A DNA stretch of 23,803 nt from a virus: positions 1-23,803 of the IMG/VR virus record IMGVR_UViG_3300034121_001217. One strand, written 5' to 3'. Position numbers and translations under genes: made by a program. Positions 15,323-23,803 of this stretch are shown here, piece after piece. Below the pieces are notes generated by a model, which worked only from the letters and a program-made list of their open reading frames with translations, searched no databases and was not told the origin of the DNA. Position 1 is the stretch's first letter; each line of letters begins with the position of its first letter.

Positions 15323-18300
15323 ATGCCTATCACTATAAAAGAACTTTTACTTTCTGATGTTATTTCTGAAGTAGTAGAAAAAGTAAATTTTAATTTTGAC
15401 CAATTGGTCTTAGCTGGAGGAGGTCCTCCAGGAATTCAAGGAATTCAAGGACTCGCAGGTCCAATAGGTCCTATTGGTGCCAGAGGAGATCATTGGTTTG
15501 TGGGATCTAGCGCTTTTGGACAAACTGCGGATCATGATGGAACTGGTCTTCAAGTACAAGATCTATTCTTAGAAAGTGATGGAGATGTTTATAAATATTT
15601 TGAAATAGGCGGTTCTACTGGTTGGACTTATAGCGGTATAAATCTAAAGGGACCTACAGGAGCTCAAGGAGTAACTGGCGGAGGTTTAGAATGGTCAATA
15701 TATTTAGGATCTACTCAAGGTAACGCAATTGGATCATATTCGTATACTCCTAAAATAATAGGAACATCTTTAGACACGGATTTCTTAGTACCTAATGCGA
15801 CAAAAGATTCAATATTTTTAGGAAGCCCTTCTTGGGCTTATAATAAATTAGATAATTTTGGTGCTAATATAGAATCACCTAATAGTTTTATTGATAGAAT
15901 TAAAAGGATGCCTAAGTTATCAATAATACAATCCGAAGTAAATACTTTTGGTATGAATGGGTTGTTATTCGGAGCTTATGGTGCTACTACTACTAGAGTA
16001 TCAAATTCATCATACGGTTCAGCAGGTCCGACTACAAGTGCATTTGATTTTGTAAATATGGGATTTGCTACTACAGATCCACAAGATCTCGGTGATGGAA
16101 CTAAATACAAAACTAGATTTAAATTAATTTCACCTAGAGCTTCTGTTAGATTTGAAATTGGCGGGATTCCTGGTAATGCGCTTCAAGGAGAAAAAAGAGT
16201 TGCTAATTTTGAAACTGTTGCTAATCAAACTAGTTTTAAAGATTGGGATAGTTCAAAATATATTAATATTGAAGATAGTAATTTTGCAGCTACTCCTATT
16301 ATCGCAAGCTTAAGAGAAATATCTATAGTTTCAAAAAATGATATATCTTCAACTCCTGGAAACACTGGCATATATTCAAATTTAATACCAACATCCGGAG
16401 CTACTAATAAATATGGATATATTGCTTTACAAAATGATCCTGGAACTAATCCAAATACTTCCGGTTGGCCGGAACATGATTATGGTAATGTAATCATAGG
16501 ACCTACAAAATTAGGTAGTGTTAATTTAGGATTTGCTTCTCCTCAAGGATTAGCTATCGTAAGAAAAATAACTAAACATGATACAGTAGATGCTGCAATA
16601 AGATTTTTTCAAACAGCATATTTGACTGGATCACCAGCACTTACTGAAGAATATAAAATAAAATCTACATTTGTAGGAGCTATTACTCCAGTAAGGATTA
16701 TCGATTCTGAGTTATCAAGCTTGCCATTAGATACTTTAGCTTTATCTTCAGGTTTAGGATATTCAATACCTGGAGTTACTGCTGCTGGTAGAATTGGATT
16801 TACTAATAATGTTTTATCTACATTCAAACCTCAACATCCTTTTCATGTTAGTATTAGCAAAGATGCTGGAACTAGAAATACAGGATGGGATCAAGGCGGA
16901 ATATTTAATGCAGGAGAATTAGATATGTTTTATGCCGGTTTTGATAATGATCCTATTATTGGATCGACTGGTAGAAATTCTGGTATAGGTCTTGCTAGTA
17001 AATCATATTTAGATTTAAATAATGTTGCACATTCTGTACCTGTTATCCAAACTTATTACCGAGTAAAACCTGGAATGGTTAATTCGATAGATAATCCATA
17101 TGATAATAGTAATCCAAGCATTGGACAAGGAACTTCTGCTCCGCATTTGTATATGCAACCGCATAATTCTAGTAATATAGGTATTGGATTTTCTCCTAAT
17201 CCTACTATTTTCAATGCCGGACAAAATGGATATTGGCCATTGGCTAAAGTTTCAATTAATGGAGGTGTAGTAATAGGATCTACTGCTCAAGGATATCATA
17301 ATTTATTAACAAACAGGCCGTCTAATGGAATTTTAGTAGAAACTACTATTATAGTAGGTGCTACAACGATAGAAAACCAATATTCTACTTCTTATGCTAC
17401 ATCAGGACAAGTTCTTAATGGAAACGGAATAGGATATTCTAATGTTAGTGCATCTTTTAATCAATTTGTTTTTGGTAGATTTTTCTTAGGAAAAAATAGT
17501 GGTACTAATGGAGGTTTTCCGGAATTTGGATTTTCGGATTTTAGGACTGGAATTAGATTAGCAACGACCAATGTTGCATCACCAAATAATAATACTGGAG
17601 TTACTGGTAAAGGACAATTAATTTCTGCACCAAATCTTACACAATCTGATAATATAAATGCTGGCAATTTTGCTTTTCCTAAAATAGTAGCAGAATGGTC
17701 ATCAAGAGGAGATTCTTTGAGAGCTGCTCAAACTGTTACTACTGCTGGAGGTAATTTTAATGTTCCAGCAGTTGATTATACTAATAATTTCGAGTATTCT
17801 AACCTTAAGATTACTGACACATATTCGGAAGAATGGAATTATCGAGAATTTTATGAATTAAGTAAAAAATTCAGTGCATTTAAAGTTCCTACTAGTAATG
17901 CATCTATACCTACTTTATTCTTTCCTGGAATATATCATGTTATTCCTACAAATAAATCTGGTTTATTTTTAAATATTGATTATTTATATGAAAATACCGT
18001 AAATACTCATTATCATTATATAGAATATGATGGAGCAATAAAACAAAGGCCAATAGCTGCTCCTGGAGGAAAACAATTATGGTATTTAAATGGATCTACT
18101 ACACCAGCTTCCGGTAATGTTGCAACTACTTTAACGGATCATAGAGATCAGAAAAGATATTTTCCACCGGATATAAATTCTGTAGATTATGCACAAACTC
18201 CTATTTTTTATGGAAATTTAGCAGGAAATAATATTCTTTCTTCTAAAGAATTTAATAGAAGATGGCCTACTAATTTTGCTATGTTAGAAGATGGCCATTA

Positions 18301-18901
18301 TAACGGACAAAAGTTTACTTTAACAGTTTTAAATGCGGACACACAAAACAATTTGTATTTAGATTCTACACCTCCACATCCTGAATTATTATCTGATACA
18401 TACAATGGAAATTGGGCCCTCAGAAATAATTTTACCACTGTTAATTCTGATGATATACGATTAAAAATTAAATCTAAAATAATATTTCCGGTTGGAGCTG
18501 ATTCCGAATATTTAGCACCAGGAACTCCTTATGGTGATTGGATTCCGGATAATCCAACTTCTGTAGTTAATGGAAATATAAATCAATCTTCTATATTAGG
18601 AAATAAATTAGGAGCTGTTCTACAAAGTTGGACAGTTTATAATTTTATATGGCAAGCTGGAGATTTTGGTTTATATAACAATATGGCATTTACTACTCTT
18701 AATACTATACCTTATAATAATGGAGGAATAACTTTCCAAACTTTTAATCAAGCAGATCCAATCAATAGGACTTTAAGTAACACAAAAGTATATGAACACG
18801 CCGGAGTTTGGATCTGTACTGGAATGACTAGATTAACTCCTAGAACTGTTTTCGATTATGGATCTTTGAATAAAATAAATAGAGAATTTACTGATCTTTA
18901 A
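15323..18901 (+). CDS. Collagen-like tail fibre protein, probable receptor-binding fibre
   Basis: This 1192-residue fibre protein probably contacts the host surface. Residues 1-28 match the N-terminus of the short fibre at 4208 (MPITIKELLLSDVI, then VNFNFDQL), suggesting a shared docking site. Residues 34-57 are a Gly-X-Y collagen run (GPPGIQGIQGLAGPIGPIG), and 110-119 is a second (GPTGAQGVTG); the intervening DGDVYKYF and GWTYSG pattern is usual in such fibres. The long middle is Gly/Ser/Asn-rich beta structure. Residues about 617-683 (SNIGIGFSPNP, later VSINGGVVIGS) resemble the IG-x-G...V-x-G...IG strand repeats of phage fibres. The C-terminal third is aromatic and could be the receptor-binding head. 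No intramolecular chaperone dyad is convincing. It ends in TAA TAA. Confidence 0.85.
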   Translation: MPITIKELLLSDVISEVVEKVNFNFDQLVLAGGGPPGIQGIQGLAGPIGPIGARGDHWFVGSSAFGQTADHDGTGLQVQDLFLESDGDVYKYFEIGGSTGWTYSGINLKGPTGAQGVTGGGLEWSIYLGSTQGNAIGSYSYTPKIIGTSLDTDFLVPNATKDSIFLGSPSWAYNKLDNFGANIESPNSFIDRIKRMPKLSIIQSEVNTFGMNGLLFGAYGATTTRVSNSSYGSAGPTTSAFDFVNMGFATTDPQDLGDGTKYKTRFKLISPRASVRFEIGGIPGNALQGEKRVANFETVANQTSFKDWDSSKYINIEDSNFAATPIIASLREISIVSKNDISSTPGNTGIYSNLIPTSGATNKYGYIALQNDPGTNPNTSGWPEHDYGNVIIGPTKLGSVNLGFASPQGLAIVRKITKHDTVDAAIRFFQTAYLTGSPALTEEYKIKSTFVGAITPVRIIDSELSSLPLDTLALSSGLGYSIPGVTAAGRIGFTNNVLSTFKPQHPFHVSISKDAGTRNTGWDQGGIFNAGELDMFYAGFDNDPIIGSTGRNSGIGLASKSYLDLNNVAHSVPVIQTYYRVKPGMVNSIDNPYDNSNPSIGQGTSAPHLYMQPHNSSNIGIGFSPNPTIFNAGQNGYWPLAKVSINGGVVIGSTAQGYHNLLTNRPSNGILVETTIIVGATTIENQYSTSYATSGQVLNGNGIGYSNVSASFNQFVFGRFFLGKNSGTNGGFPEFGFSDFRTGIRLATTNVASPNNNTGVTGKGQLISAPNLTQSDNINAGNFAFPKIVAEWSSRGDSLRAAQTVTTAGGNFNVPAVDYTNNFEYSNLKITDTYSEEWNYREFYELSKKFSAFKVPTSNASIPTLFFPGIYHVIPTNKSGLFLNIDYLYENTVNTHYHYIEYDGAIKQRPIAAPGGKQLWYLNGSTTPASGNVATTLTDHRDQKRYFPPDINSVDYAQTPIFYGNLAGNNILSSKEFNRRWPTNFAMLEDGHYNGQKFTLTVLNADTQNNLYLDSTPPHPELLSDTYNGNWALRNNFTTVNSDDIRLKIKSKIIFPVGADSEYLAPGTPYGDWIPDNPTSVVNGNINQSSILGNKLGAVLQSWTVYNFIWQAGDFGLYNNMAFTTLNTIPYNNGGITFQTFNQADPINRTLSNTKVYEHAGVWICTGMTRLTPRTVFDYGSLNKINREFTDL

Positions 18902-18915
18902 TAAATTTAAAATAA

Positions 18916-19704
18916 ATGAAAATAAATAAAGATCTTTTACTTTTTGGATCAATTTTAATTTTAATCTTTTTTAGTCTCTATCAATGCGACTCTAATCGAG
19001 ATCTAAAAGATCAAGCTAAAATAGATGAACAAAATAGATTAGCTCTGACGGATTCTGTTAGGATTATTAAGAATGATTTAGGAGAAGAAATTTCCATTAA
19101 AAATGTCTTAATAGCAGATAAGAAAGAGCTTTTCTCTTTAAATAAAGATCTTGCAAATGATTTAGGTAAGCTAGAAGGAAAAGTAAAATATATTTCATCT
19201 ATAGTAACTGATATAAAAAATAGTGAACCGATAGTAATTACAAATACCGTAAAAGAATATCCTGATGGATTGAAAGAATTATCATGGAATTATGATAAAC
19301 AATTCGATGAAAATAATTCTAGAAAGATAGAAGGAAGTTCTAAATTTGTAATTGATACTACTAAAAAGATATTAAAAATCGTAGATAAAGGCACGGTTAT
19401 TACTAAGGATGAAATGAAAATTAAGCTAATTACTGGATTAACAGAAATTGACGGATCTTATCAGATATATGTTAAAACTGATTATCCTGGAGTTAAATTC
19501 GATAAGATTGATGGATCCGTTTTAGATAAGGAGATGTTCATAAAACCAAAAGAACCTTCGGTAATTATGGGTCCTTCTATTAGTGCTGGTATGGCATTAA
19601 ATCCTATAACTTTACAATTGCAACCACAAATTAGCTTAGGCATTAGTTATACTTTGAACGCTAATAAATATATAAGAAAGATAAAGAAGATATTTAATCC
19701 ATAA
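18916..19704 (+). CDS. Membrane-anchored coiled-coil protein, possible spanin or virion/envelope factor
   Basis: This 262-residue protein has a short basic N-terminus, then a hydrophobic segment at residues about 7-22 (LLLFGSILILIFFSLY) followed by Cys24. The Y-Q before the Cys is a poor lipobox, so a plain N-terminal membrane anchor is more likely than a lipoprotein. Residues about 27-100 are charged and helical (coiled coil). The rest looks beta-rich and ends with GPSISAGMALNPIT...GISYTLN, a pattern I associate with small membrane-anchored proteins of Bacteroidota phages (DUF6808-like); that likeness is from memory and unproven. The topology fits an inner-membrane spanin, but no holin or endolysin gene is visible nearby. 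It lies 14 bases after the fibre gene and overlaps the next gene by one base (TAATG). Confidence 0.75.
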   Translation: MKINKDLLLFGSILILIFFSLYQCDSNRDLKDQAKIDEQNRLALTDSVRIIKNDLGEEISIKNVLIADKKELFSLNKDLANDLGKLEGKVKYISSIVTDIKNSEPIVITNTVKEYPDGLKELSWNYDKQFDENNSRKIEGSSKFVIDTTKKILKIVDKGTVITKDEMKIKLITGLTEIDGSYQIYVKTDYPGVKFDKIDGSVLDKEMFIKPKEPSVIMGPSISAGMALNPITLQLQPQISLGISYTLNANKYIRKIKKIFNP

Positions 19705-21881: not shown

Positions 21882-22448
21882 ATGATTCTTCAAAATAGAA
21901 ATGACCTTTTTAAGGTAGAACTTCCTAAGGTTTTTATACCAGATGAGATTAAGGCTAGATATGCACCTTATCTATTTAGAATGCCTACGCCTATAACTGA
22001 TGTTTCAGATTTAGTTAATTATTCTATTCAATCGATAACTATTCCTAATTTTAATTATCAACCGGTAGAACAAACAAAACCAGGATATTATGAGCAAGCA
22101 AAAGGTACTGTTAGGAAATTTCGGCAATCGCTTTCTCCGGAATTACTTATTGATAGAAATTTTACTATTACTTTTCAGCTATTAGATGGAAATGTCAATT
22201 ATTGGATTATGCTAGAAACATTTTTTCATTATTATTCTTATGCCGCTACTAAACCTTACACTCATGATGTCCCTTTAAGAATATTTGATGCCGAGGGTAT
22301 ATGTATGTACACTTCATTCTTTAAAGATTGTTTGTTTACCGGCTTAAATCAATTCACTCTTTCTTATTCCGAAATCACTCCTGAATTTAGAACATTTGAA
22401 TGTACGTTTGCATTTAATGATATTCAGATAGATTTTCAAACCCAATAA
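21882..22448 (+). CDS. Tail tube-like protein (tube or baseplate tube-initiator candidate)
   Basis: This 188-residue protein has the size and strand pattern of contractile-tail tube proteins such as T4 gp19, or the gp54/gp48-type proteins that begin the tube on the baseplate. Visible features are VNYSIQSITIPNFNYQPVEQ (about residues 45-64), the strand FTITFQLLDGNVNYWIMLE (about 93-111), the strand VPLRIFDAEGICMYT (about 128-142), and the closing pair FTLSYSEITPEFRTFECTF followed by NDIQIDF. That alternation, with a short helix and YW after the long strand, is what a tube beta-sandwich shows. The family call is by pattern, not by a database match. It follows the previous gene after three bases and leads into the resolvase gene after three bases. 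Confidence 0.6.
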   Translation: MILQNRNDLFKVELPKVFIPDEIKARYAPYLFRMPTPITDVSDLVNYSIQSITIPNFNYQPVEQTKPGYYEQAKGTVRKFRQSLSPELLIDRNFTITFQLLDGNVNYWIMLETFFHYYSYAATKPYTHDVPLRIFDAEGICMYTSFFKDCLFTGLNQFTLSYSEITPEFRTFECTFAFNDIQIDFQTQ

Positions 22449-22451
22449 TAT

Positions 22452-23051
22452 ATGAAAATCGGGATAGATTTTTCCATAAATTCCACTGCGATATGTATTC
22501 AATCGGATGAAATGAAGCTATTTTCATTTGTTCCTGATTATCGTTCAACTTTATCTGGATTTAAAATACATAATAAAATATCGGATATCGTAGATATAAT
22601 ATCCTATGATAAAAAATCAACTACTAAAGATCCTATCGAGGATCAATCTATTAAGCTTTCTAATGCGGATTCTTTATCTAATGCAATCATTAGTACAATA
22701 GAACCTTTCATTACAGGAATTCCTGAAATAAGAATAGAAGGGTTTTCATTTGGATCTAAAGGAAATGCCTTTATAGATATAATAACTTATAATACATTTT
22801 TGAAAGTTAAAATTATTCAAAAATGGGGTAATTGTATTTCCGTAATTTCACCAAAGACCGTTAAGAAACTTTATACTGGAAATGGTAATGCTTCTAAATG
22901 TGATATGCTTAGAACATTCTTTACAAAAGAAGATTCAATATTTAAACAAAGATTCGAAGATCTAGGATTAAATCGAGAAGAAGATTTTAATATACCAAAG
23001 CCTATTGACGATCTTATTGATTCCGTAGCTCTTTGTAGTATTCAAATATAA
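22452..23051 (+). CDS. RuvC-like Holliday junction resolvase (RNase H fold)
   Basis: This 199-residue nuclease probably cuts branched DNA made during phage replication and recombination so that it can be packaged. The RNase H-fold acidic set is visible: D6 in the first strand (KIGIDFSINSTAICI), E96 in IRIEGFSFGSKGN, and D187 and D190 in PIDDLIDSVALC, matching the D, E and D-x-x-D of RuvC. Lysines around ISPKTVKKLYTGNGNASK (about 132-149) fit the DNA-binding region between them. The IEGFSFGSKGN form is typical of phage-type rather than bacterial RuvC proteins. All key acids are present, so it is probably active. It starts three bases after the tube-like gene, which puts it in the late operon, where T4 uses the unrelated endonuclease VII for the same job. 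Confidence 0.85.
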   Translation: MKIGIDFSINSTAICIQSDEMKLFSFVPDYRSTLSGFKIHNKISDIVDIISYDKKSTTKDPIEDQSIKLSNADSLSNAIISTIEPFITGIPEIRIEGFSFGSKGNAFIDIITYNTFLKVKIIQKWGNCISVISPKTVKKLYTGNGNASKCDMLRTFFTKEDSIFKQRFEDLGLNREEDFNIPKPIDDLIDSVALCSIQI

Positions 23052-23191: not shown

Positions 23192-23230
23192 ATGAAGAAC
23201 TTACCAACTTATTCTGAATTTTTAAATGAA
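23192..23230 (+). other. Predicted capsid targeting sequence with prohead protease site (first gene)
   Basis: Codons 1-13 encode MKNLPTYSEFLNE. The T-Y-S-E-F-L-N-E core aligns with T4 internal-protein leaders (Y-Q-E-F-I-A-E), and the end L-N-E|A fits the T4 gp21 rule of cleavage after L/I-x-E. The assignment is by motif. The prohead protease gene lies outside this window. Confidence 0.6.
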
Positions 23231-23545
23231 GCTGAATCTGGTCCTGAAAGTCGAATCGACGATCTTGCTAATGATCCTAAGGTCCAATCAAAATTGGATA
23301 CATCGGATACTGCAAAACTAAAACATGCATTTCTTGTTCTATTCAAGAGAGGATATGGAGCAGCTCAAACTAACTGGGGAGCTGTTAGACCAGAAATCAA
23401 AGCATTAGGAAAACCAGCAGCATATAACGCTTGGGGTTATGCTAGACTTAATGCTTTTATTGATAAGAGAAAAGGATATGAAACATCTGATTCTGATATA
23501 GCTGATTGGCTCAAAGGAAAGGGAGAAAAACCACAACCGAAATAA
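23192..23545 (+). CDS. Candidate internal head protein with T4-like capsid targeting leader
   Basis: This 117-residue protein begins MKNLPTYSEFLNEAES. That matches the T4 internal-protein leader type (a start like MKTYQEFIAE followed by A), which directs proteins into the prohead core and is cut by the prohead protease after L/I-x-E. The expected cut is after E13 (L-N-E|A), leaving a 104-residue mature protein. The mature part is helical and mildly basic, with a core near residues 42-88 (KLKHAFLVLFKRGYGAAQTN, later YNAWGYARLNAFIDKRKGY) and a Lys/Pro-rich end (KGKGEKPQPK). I do not recognise this domain. It is the first gene after the 140-base gap and overlaps the next gene by one base (TAATG). 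I infer that it is packaged with, and perhaps ejected with, the DNA. Confidence 0.75.
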   Translation: MKNLPTYSEFLNEAESGPESRIDDLANDPKVQSKLDTSDTAKLKHAFLVLFKRGYGAAQTNWGAVRPEIKALGKPAAYNAWGYARLNAFIDKRKGYETSDSDIADWLKGKGEKPQPK

Positions 23546-23583
23546 TGAATACATTTTTATCATACGAAGAATTTCTTTTAGAA
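23545..23583 (+). other. Predicted capsid targeting sequence with prohead protease site (second gene)
   Basis: Codons 1-13 encode MNTFLSYEEFLLE. S-Y-E-E-F-L-L-E occupies residues 6-13, exactly as T-Y-S-E-F-L-N-E does in the preceding gene, although the sequences after residue 14 are unrelated by eye. Sharing of only the leader is what a sorting signal would show. Confidence 0.6.
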
Positions 23584-23803
23584 AAACAGAAACATCATCC
23601 CGGAGATCCTCCTGAGATAGGTCTTTATTCTAAAGGAGGGAAAGAAGCTATAAAAGGAACTGGATATGCTAATAAAGAAAAGGCAGAATACACTATAAAA
23701 GAGCTTAATAAATTAATAGACAAAGGTGAATTCAAATGGGCTATGTCAATTGCTACTACAATGGAAAGTCGAGCAAAGAAACATCAGCATCAAACTCCTG
23801 AAA
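23545..23803 (+). CDS. Second candidate internal head protein with the same leader (partial, 3' end beyond window)
   Basis: The frame opens with ATG at 23545, overlapping the previous stop (TAATG), and stays open to the window edge, giving at least 86 residues. The first 13 residues, MNTFLSYEEFLLE, repeat the leader of the previous protein in the same register, with a predicted prohead protease cut after L-L-E13|K. The rest is strongly basic and helical: YSKGGKEAIKGTGYANKEKA, then IKELNKLIDKG, and ATTMESRAKKHQHQTPE at the edge. The last part resembles a small conserved phage motif with an M-x-x-R-A-K-x-H core; I cannot name the family. Basic character suits a DNA-associated core protein. The C-terminus is not seen. 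Confidence 0.75.
   Translation, partial: MNTFLSYEEFLLEKQKHHPGDPPEIGLYSKGGKEAIKGTGYANKEKAEYTIKELNKLIDKGEFKWAMSIATTMESRAKKHQHQTPE

What the first reader, a model, noticed from the sequence alone, without database searches (positions are those of the whole stretch)
23192..23803. Two tandem genes share only a T4-like capsid targeting leader
Seen: the proteins start MKNLPTYSEFLNE|A and MNTFLSYEEFLLE|K. The [ST]-Y-x-E-F-L-x-E core falls at residues 6-13 in both, and the remaining sequences look unrelated. Known: T4 internal proteins carry a short N-terminal capsid targeting sequence with a Y-x-E-F-I-x-E core, and gp21 protease cuts after L/I-x-E. Inferred: these are internal head proteins packaged in the prohead core, possibly ejected with the DNA to act on the host, as T4 IPI does against a restriction enzyme. 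If so, the leader can be used to find the phage's whole ejected set.
Basis: partly seen in the sequence, partly recalled or inferred. Interest (0 to 1): 0.8.

Follow-up and report, generated by a model that had tools for sequence, protein, structure and literature searches.

The report
T4-like capsid leaders on dozens of proteins
A large Bacteroidota-type virus family puts the same short address label on 27 to 52 otherwise unrelated proteins per genome, a label that looks like the one phage T4 uses to load proteins into its head, so the label probably reveals the whole set of proteins carried in the virus particle and perhaps injected into the host.

Summary
Both genes (23192-23545 and 23545-23803, the second cut by the contig end) start with the stated leader. 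In four long relatives (144-294 kb) the same leader opens 33, 52, 35 and 27 genes, against 0.13-0.45 expected by chance. The 149 leader proteins fall into 84 unrelated mature families, and conservation stops right after the predicted cut. Every long relative also has the T4 parts the idea needs: a gp21-type (S77) prohead protease, fused to a scaffold-like region with 14-16 [LIV]xE|[AGS] sites, and a gp23-type capsid protein. The four most telling leader columns are those shown in T4 IPIII to govern targeting and processing. Mature proteins are lysine-rich, as expected for proteins packed with DNA. In the distant relative PAU, 4 of 5 proteins annotated 'internal capsid protein' share a leader of the same design. 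Best reading: a capsid-targeting leader removed by the prohead protease, expanded to about a tenth of all genes. Leaders of unrelated neighbours resemble each other more than those of orthologues do, suggesting that leaders are copied locally. Packaging, cleavage and ejection are inferred; no virion data exist for these phages.

The parts
23192..23230 (+). Leader of gene 1, MKNLPTYSEFLNE (13 codons); predicted cut after E13, P1' = Ala
   Evidence: leader-type N-termini in the gene 1 orthologues, drifted in some
23231..23542 (+). Predicted mature gene 1 protein (104 aa), all-helical compact domain of unknown function
   Evidence: AlphaFold2 mean pLDDT 83.3, helices from residue 18 on; no Pfam or PHROG family, no PDB or viral fold match; 61-82% best-segment identity to orthologues in 7 contigs
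23543..23547 (+). TAATG stop/start overlap of genes 1 and 2, suggesting translational coupling
   Evidence: Sequence; inference
23545..23583 (+). Leader of gene 2, MNTFLSYEEFLLE (13 codons); predicted cut after E13, P1' = Lys
   Evidence: present in all 12 homologues with a readable N-terminus
23584..23803 (+). Predicted mature part of gene 2, truncated by the contig end; a three-helix domain that is single or tandem in orthologues
   Evidence: Alignment and model of a full-length orthologue
22452..23051 (+). Context: RuvC-like Holliday junction resolvase, no leader
   Evidence: phrog_159, E 8.7e-14
21882..22448 (+). Context: tail tube-like protein, no leader; used to find relatives
   Evidence: phrog_45, E 2.2e-4; relatives

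Best explanation
The 13-residue start of both proteins is a capsid-targeting leader that works like the T4 CTS. During head assembly it docks each protein onto the scaffold core. The S77 prohead protease (present in the relatives, fused to the scaffold) then cuts after [LIV]-x-E, leaving the mature domain inside the head among the DNA. In this phage group the device has spread to about 27-52 unrelated proteins per genome, roughly a tenth of all genes, many in tandem arrays. The mature proteins are small and lysine-rich and include ADP-ribosyltransferase-like, RimK-type ATP-grasp, nucleotidyltransferase-like and many unknown domains. Most are probably delivered to the host with the DNA to counter defence or reprogram the cell. 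Shown: the shared leader, its statistics, protease, scaffold and capsid genes, the site code, the arrays, and unrelated mature domains. Inferred: docking, cleavage, packaging, ejection and function.
For: Leader excess of two orders of magnitude in four genomes. Sharp end of conservation at P1' (S/A/G preferred), with F/Y at 0 (3.49 bits), F at +3 (3.92), L/V/I at +4 (2.28) and E at +6 (3.87) among the most conserved columns. These correspond to T4 IPIII residues 4 and 7 (targeting) and 8 and 10 (processing) (PMC9026906). S77 protease and Gp23 capsid protein in 6/6 relatives. The protease-scaffold ORF has 14-16 [LIV]xE[AGS] sites against about 2.5 in shuffles, the top or near-top protein in each genome. 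A second [LIV]NE site follows the leader in 32/149 proteins against 1.4 in shuffles; redundant propeptide cuts are known in giant phages (PMC9026906, PMC5694885). Mature parts: lysine 11.0% against 8.6% in conserved non-leader genes, p about 1e-19. Codons vary, so selection acts on the peptide. In PAU, 4 of 5 annotated internal capsid proteins and the annotated scaffold carry a leader of the same plan, p about 7e-5. T4 as control: two genes with MKTYQEFIAEA are recovered.
Against: No virion proteomics or N-terminal sequence was found for any close member of this group. One PAU protein annotated as internal (gp70) lacks a leader, and several PAU leader proteins have no virion annotation; the basis of those annotations is not stated in the record. 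PTm1, a relative with the same protease type, shows no leader set. Gene 2 has Lys at P1', which is rare in the set. A glycosyltransferase carries the leader, which is not an obvious head cargo. Ejection is not addressed by any sequence test.
Confidence: 0.85

Rival explanations
1. The leader is a docking tag for another phage structure or compartment (for example a replication or membrane site), not the capsid, and is not cleaved.
For: No localisation data; enzymes such as a glycosyltransferase and RimK-type ligases carry it. PTm1 has the protease but no leader set.
Against: The leader ends in the same [LIV]xE|[AGS] code that crowds the protease-linked scaffold. A second such site often follows. 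The key positions match T4's CTS, and PAU internal capsid proteins have the analogous leader.
Confidence: 0.08
2. Packaged but structural: the proteins stay in the head as core or DNA-condensing proteins and are not effectors delivered to the host.
For: Lysine-rich mature domains; a few leader proteins are conserved in all four genomes and lie in the head gene cluster.
Against: Most families are found in one genome only (56 of 84 clusters are singletons), and some match enzyme families (ADP-ribosyltransferase, RNA 2'-phosphotransferase, RimK, nucleotidyltransferase), which suits effectors better than scaffolding.
Confidence: 0.25
3. The leader genes are diverged paralogues of one ancestral gene, and the leader is simply the part still recognisable.
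For: Arrays of adjacent genes and some real paralogue pairs.
Against: 84 clusters with different lengths (65-501 aa) and different domain families; conservation stops abruptly after the cut site.
Confidence: 0.04
4. The conservation reflects a translation-initiation or mRNA element at the start of late genes, not a peptide signal.
For: Located at gene starts; TTC is somewhat favoured at the invariant Phe.
Against: Synonymous codons vary widely at nearly every leader position. Orthologues keep the peptide pattern while changing residues. Tail and capsid genes of the same phages lack it.
Confidence: 0.02

Closest known systems
Phage T4 internal proteins IPI, IPII, IPIII and Alt with their capsid targeting sequence (CTS), cut by gp21
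   Same: Short N-terminal leader with the same aromatic, Phe, [LIV], Glu spacing; cut motif L/I-x-E; otherwise unrelated mature proteins; a gp21-family protease and gp23-family capsid protein in the genome.
   Different: About 27-52 leader genes per genome instead of the handful described for T4; leader is usually 13 not 10 residues (MKNIPTFEEFLNE against MKTYQEFIAE); tandem arrays; frequent second cut site; protease fused to scaffold; no mature domain recognisably shared with T4 proteins.
Ejection proteins of giant phages phiKZ, 201phi2-1 and SPN3US
   Same: Jumbo phages whose prohead protease trims many head-internal proteins after Glu, often at several sites (PMC9026906, PMC5694885).
   Different: Those propeptides are mostly long (often over 100 residues) with a different motif (S/A-x-E in phiKZ); here the leader is short and uniform like T4's.
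Sphingomonas phage PAU (distant relative) internal capsid proteins gp142, gp154, gp199, gp270
   Same: About 20 PAU proteins start MK[ST][LI]xxLYE, and several continue to KLNE|A; four are annotated internal capsid proteins.
   Different: The consensus differs (LYE instead of FEEF), there are fewer genes, and the protease and scaffold are separate genes.
Uncultured 462-kb phage LR756500
   Same: About 22 genes with MKYIxEYEEFLxE leaders; the closest annotated-collection record to the window phage in tail proteins.
   Different: Own leader dialect; record unannotated.

Membership tests
T4-type CTS-bearing internal head proteins | N-terminal 10-20 residue leader with aromatic and Phe targeting residues and an [LI]-x-E end | tested here: met
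   positions compared with T4 mutational data in PMC9026906
T4-type CTS-bearing internal head proteins | Same leader on several proteins with unrelated mature parts | tested here: met
   149 leader proteins in 84 mature clusters, 56 singletons
T4-type CTS-bearing internal head proteins | Phage encodes a gp21-family (S77) prohead protease | tested here: met
   PF03420 over cut-off in 6/6 long relatives, phrog_207 E 1.3e-39; not in the 23.8-kb window, which is only a fragment
T4-type CTS-bearing internal head proteins | Leader is removed by the prohead protease | not testable with these tools
   Only the site code can be compared: the leader end matches sites in the scaffold and the IIE and LYE sites in the capsid protein N-terminus
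T4-type CTS-bearing internal head proteins | Mature protein is inside the virion head | not testable with these tools
   Indirect support only: lysine enrichment and annotated PAU internal capsid proteins
T4-type CTS-bearing internal head proteins | Protein is ejected with DNA and acts in the host | not testable with these tools
   No sequence test; some enzyme-like domains
phiKZ/SPN3US-type ejection proteins | Long propeptides cut after S/A-x-E | tested here: not met
   Leaders are about 13 residues and end in [LIV]-x-E
T4 gp23-type major capsid protein | Gp23 family match with an N-terminal propeptide site | tested here: met
   PF07068 in 6/6; conserved IIE|S at 18 and LYE|N at 43. The PAU homologue is N-terminally trimmed from 585 to 520 residues (PMC5646251), close to its LME|N site

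The most novel reading that the evidence does not exclude
These phages run a modular cargo platform. A short capsid-targeting leader is copied between neighbouring genes and attached to new mature domains, so that about a tenth of the genes encode 30-50 different proteins loaded into one head and injected as a first-strike effector set, including ADP-ribosyltransferase-like and RimK-type protein-modifying enzymes. Unrelated neighbours share leaders more closely (63% identity) than orthologues in other genomes do (54%).
Probability: 0.5. Interest if true: 0.85.

Novelty: new variant of a known kind. Interest (0 to 1): 0.72.

Why it matters
Proteins that phages inject with their DNA are the first contact with host defences, but they are usually found one at a time by virion proteomics. 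Here a 13-residue label lists the likely set for uncultured phages from sequence alone, giving more than 80 mostly uncharacterised families to test for anti-defence activity. It also gives a natural experiment on how a targeting signal spreads between unrelated genes, and a new set of leaders and cut sites for loading foreign proteins into phage heads.

Tried and rejected
Fold search of gene 1 (PDB and viral models) and gene 2 (PDB): no match with E below 0.6. Sequence search against PDB: nothing meaningful. Annotated phages: no gene 1 or gene 2 homologue by tblastn; no gene 1 homologue in bacterial or archaeal genome contigs. A T4-late-promoter-like TATAAATA upstream of leader genes: not enriched. 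Membership of the ribosomal-S21 lake phages (PMC9723584): no S21 gene in six relatives, so not claimed. PHROG 'internal head protein' match to a leader gene: a match at 6e-4 was seen but the member was not identified; the one member found is only 0.009, so it is not used as evidence. Host: Bacteroidota is inferred only from relatives (Tenacibaculum, Prevotella, Chryseobacterium and Flavobacterium phages and PAU share the tail proteins).

Full report
WHAT IS IN THE WINDOW. The record is a complete 23,803-base virus contig, a fragment of a larger phage. It carries tail and baseplate genes, a tail-tube-like protein (21882-22448), a RuvC-like resolvase (22452-23051), and then the two genes of the finding. 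Gene 1 (23192-23545) begins MKNLPTYSEFLNE|A. Gene 2 begins at 23545 with MNTFLSYEEFLLE|K, overlaps gene 1 by one base (TAATG) and is cut by the contig end. Neither has a convincing match in Pfam or PHROGs. The tail genes place the phage near Bacteroidota jumbo phages: PAU, Tenacibaculum PTm1/pT24, Chryseobacterium MA9V and the Lak phages.

THE LEADER IS A GENOME-WIDE MODULE. Relatives were found with gene 1 and with the tail tube protein, and four long ones (246, 294, 254 and 144 kb) were read in full. A simple pattern (M, 2-9 residues, [YF]xx[FY][LIVM]xE) hits 30, 45, 31 and 24 gene starts, against 0.4-0.7 in shuffled N-termini and 0.5-1.1 from the internal rate. A position-weight profile gives 33/326, 52/459, 35/355 and 27/224 genes, with 0.13-0.45 expected. 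The consensus is MKNIPTFEEFLNE|[SAG]. A few more genes carry variants with a small insertion before NE, including a RimK-type ATP-grasp protein beside the head genes: MKNRLAYFNEFVINEA in G003, closely similar in G001 and G002, and a plain leader in G004. No gene longer than 520 aa carries a leader under the gene calls used; one search lists one such ORF in G004 with a possible leader at a downstream start.

THE REST OF EACH PROTEIN IS UNRELATED. After removing the leader, 149 proteins form 84 clusters, 56 of them singletons. Information content drops from 3.9 bits at the Glu to 1.0 at P1' and about 0.2 beyond. Recognisable domains include KTSC, RimK ATP-grasp, cytidylyltransferase-like, ADP-ribosyltransferase (PolyVal type, weak, E 1e-3), RNA 2'-phosphotransferase-like, PAP2 and a family 2 glycosyltransferase. 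Most have no match.

WHY CAPSID TARGETING. First, all six long relatives have a gp21-type S77 protease and a gp23-type capsid protein, with the portal gene alongside in G001. Second, mutational work on T4 IPIII assigns targeting to residues 4 and 7 and processing to residues 8 and 10 (PMC9026906); these map onto the aromatic, Phe, [LIV] and Glu columns, which are among the most conserved here. Third, the relatives' protease is the N-terminal part of a 614-643 aa ORF (in G001 phrog_207 covers residues 13-272). The rest holds most of the 14-16 [LIV]xE[AGS] sites, against about 2.5 in shuffles; one, VNE|SF or VNE|AF, lies just after the protease domain, and many read LNES, VNEG or INEG exactly like leader ends. 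A second protein in the head cluster is similarly site-rich (10-18 sites). Fourth, 32 of 149 leaders are followed within a few residues by another [LIV]NE site (1.4 expected), matching the redundant propeptide cuts reported in giant phages (PMC9026906, PMC5694885). Fifth, mature leader proteins are lysine-rich, 11.0% against 8.6% in conserved non-leader genes of the same phages (p about 1e-19); lysines of T4 internal proteins contact DNA phosphates (PMC3012670).

AN OUTSIDE CHECK. In Sphingomonas phage PAU about 20 genes start MK[ST][LI]xxLYE, several continuing to KLNE|A. The GenBank record labels five proteins 'internal capsid protein'; four carry this leader (p about 7e-5), as does the annotated scaffold gp152. 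N-terminal sequencing showed the PAU capsid protein is trimmed from 585 to 520 residues (PMC5646251), within a residue of its LME|N site. The 462-kb phage LR756500 has about 22 genes with MKYIxEYEEFLxE. T4 itself, as a control, yields two genes starting MKTYQEFIAEA, which by size and position I take to be IPII and IPIII (identity from my knowledge). PTm1 and MaF61 show no such set, so the expansion is not universal.

ORTHOLOGUES AND SPREAD. Gene 2 homologues keep the leader in all 12 cases with a readable start, although the linker after it varies by up to about 20 residues. Gene 1 orthologues have leader-type starts, with drift: one has an altered start that still ends LLNE|A, one is extended (MKNLITYDEFVDFALNE), and one ends LLE|S instead of LNE|A (MNKFLKYEDFLLES). 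Leader genes sit in runs of up to 10 (adjacent pairs 16, 31, 18 and 16, against 3-6 at random). Leaders of unrelated neighbours (within two genes) are 63% identical, orthologous leaders in different genomes 54%, and distant unrelated leaders in one genome 47% (0 of 200 permutations reach the neighbour effect). Codon identity at shared residues is only mildly raised in neighbours (0.66 against 0.61). This suggests that leaders are copied locally onto new genes, but it could also reflect local gene conversion.

STRUCTURE. Gene 1 is predicted as a compact helical domain from residue 18, with the leader as a short separate low-confidence helix (mean pLDDT 83.3). The full-length gene 2 orthologue is two three-helix units on flexible linkers, again with a short leader helix (mean pLDDT 66.6). 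Neither has a fold match, so what these two proteins do in a host is unknown. By analogy with T4 IPI and Alt the likeliest role is interference with a host defence or host enzyme after injection, which I rate about 0.6 given packaging.

LIMITS. Genes were called by a simple rule, so counts may shift by a few. The profile was trained on the same genomes, although the plain pattern and shuffles are independent of it. Relatives are metagenomic assemblies. No cleavage, packaging or ejection was observed. The novelty judgement rests on the held library: 15 papers mention the capsid targeting sequence, and judging by titles, abstracts and the passages read, none describes Bacteroidota jumbo phages or sets of this size.

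Noticed in passing
L044:5957-7801 (G001:81957-83801) and equivalents: Prohead protease and a scaffold-like region are one 614-643 aa protein with 14-16 [LIV]xE[AGS] sites, unlike the separate protease and scaffold genes of T4 and PAU.
   Followed up: partly
L043:17470-19029 (G001:74470-76029) and equivalents: A second protein in the head cluster (468-575 aa) is as rich in putative prohead protease sites (10-18) as the protease-scaffold; no family match. Likely a second core protein.
   Followed up: partly
G001:87756, G002:97441, G003:238020, G004:109121: A RimK-type ATP-grasp protein near the head genes carries a leader or a leader variant in all four genomes; a possible injected protein-modifying enzyme.
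   Followed up: partly
JQ362498 (PAU), about 20 genes, clustered at 100-114 kb: PAU has its own leader dialect MK[ST][LI]xxLYE(AKLNE), apparently undescribed in the record, shared by annotated internal capsid proteins.
   Followed up: yes
LR756500, about 22 genes: 462-kb uncultured phage has a third leader dialect MKYIxEYEEFLxE.
   Followed up: partly
window 15323-18901: Large tail-region protein has a collagen-like stretch (GPPGIQGIQGLAGPIGPIGARGD) near its N-terminus.
   Followed up: no
window 18916-19704: 262-aa protein with an N-terminal hydrophobic segment followed by a cysteine, possibly a membrane or lipoprotein component in the tail gene region.
   Followed up: no
alignment A1 (leader proteins of G001 and G004), member not identified: One leader protein matches Pfam NleE (cysteine methyltransferase family) at E 7e-5.
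   Followed up: no
L184, L090 and other gene 2 orthologues: The linker between the two repeats often holds another [LI]xE|G site (for example ILAE|GDG), so the protein might be cut into two domains.
   Followed up: no
G001:237911-238813: A family 2 glycosyltransferase (E 2e-13) carries a leader (MFFKKFEEFVNEN), an unexpected head cargo.
   Followed up: no
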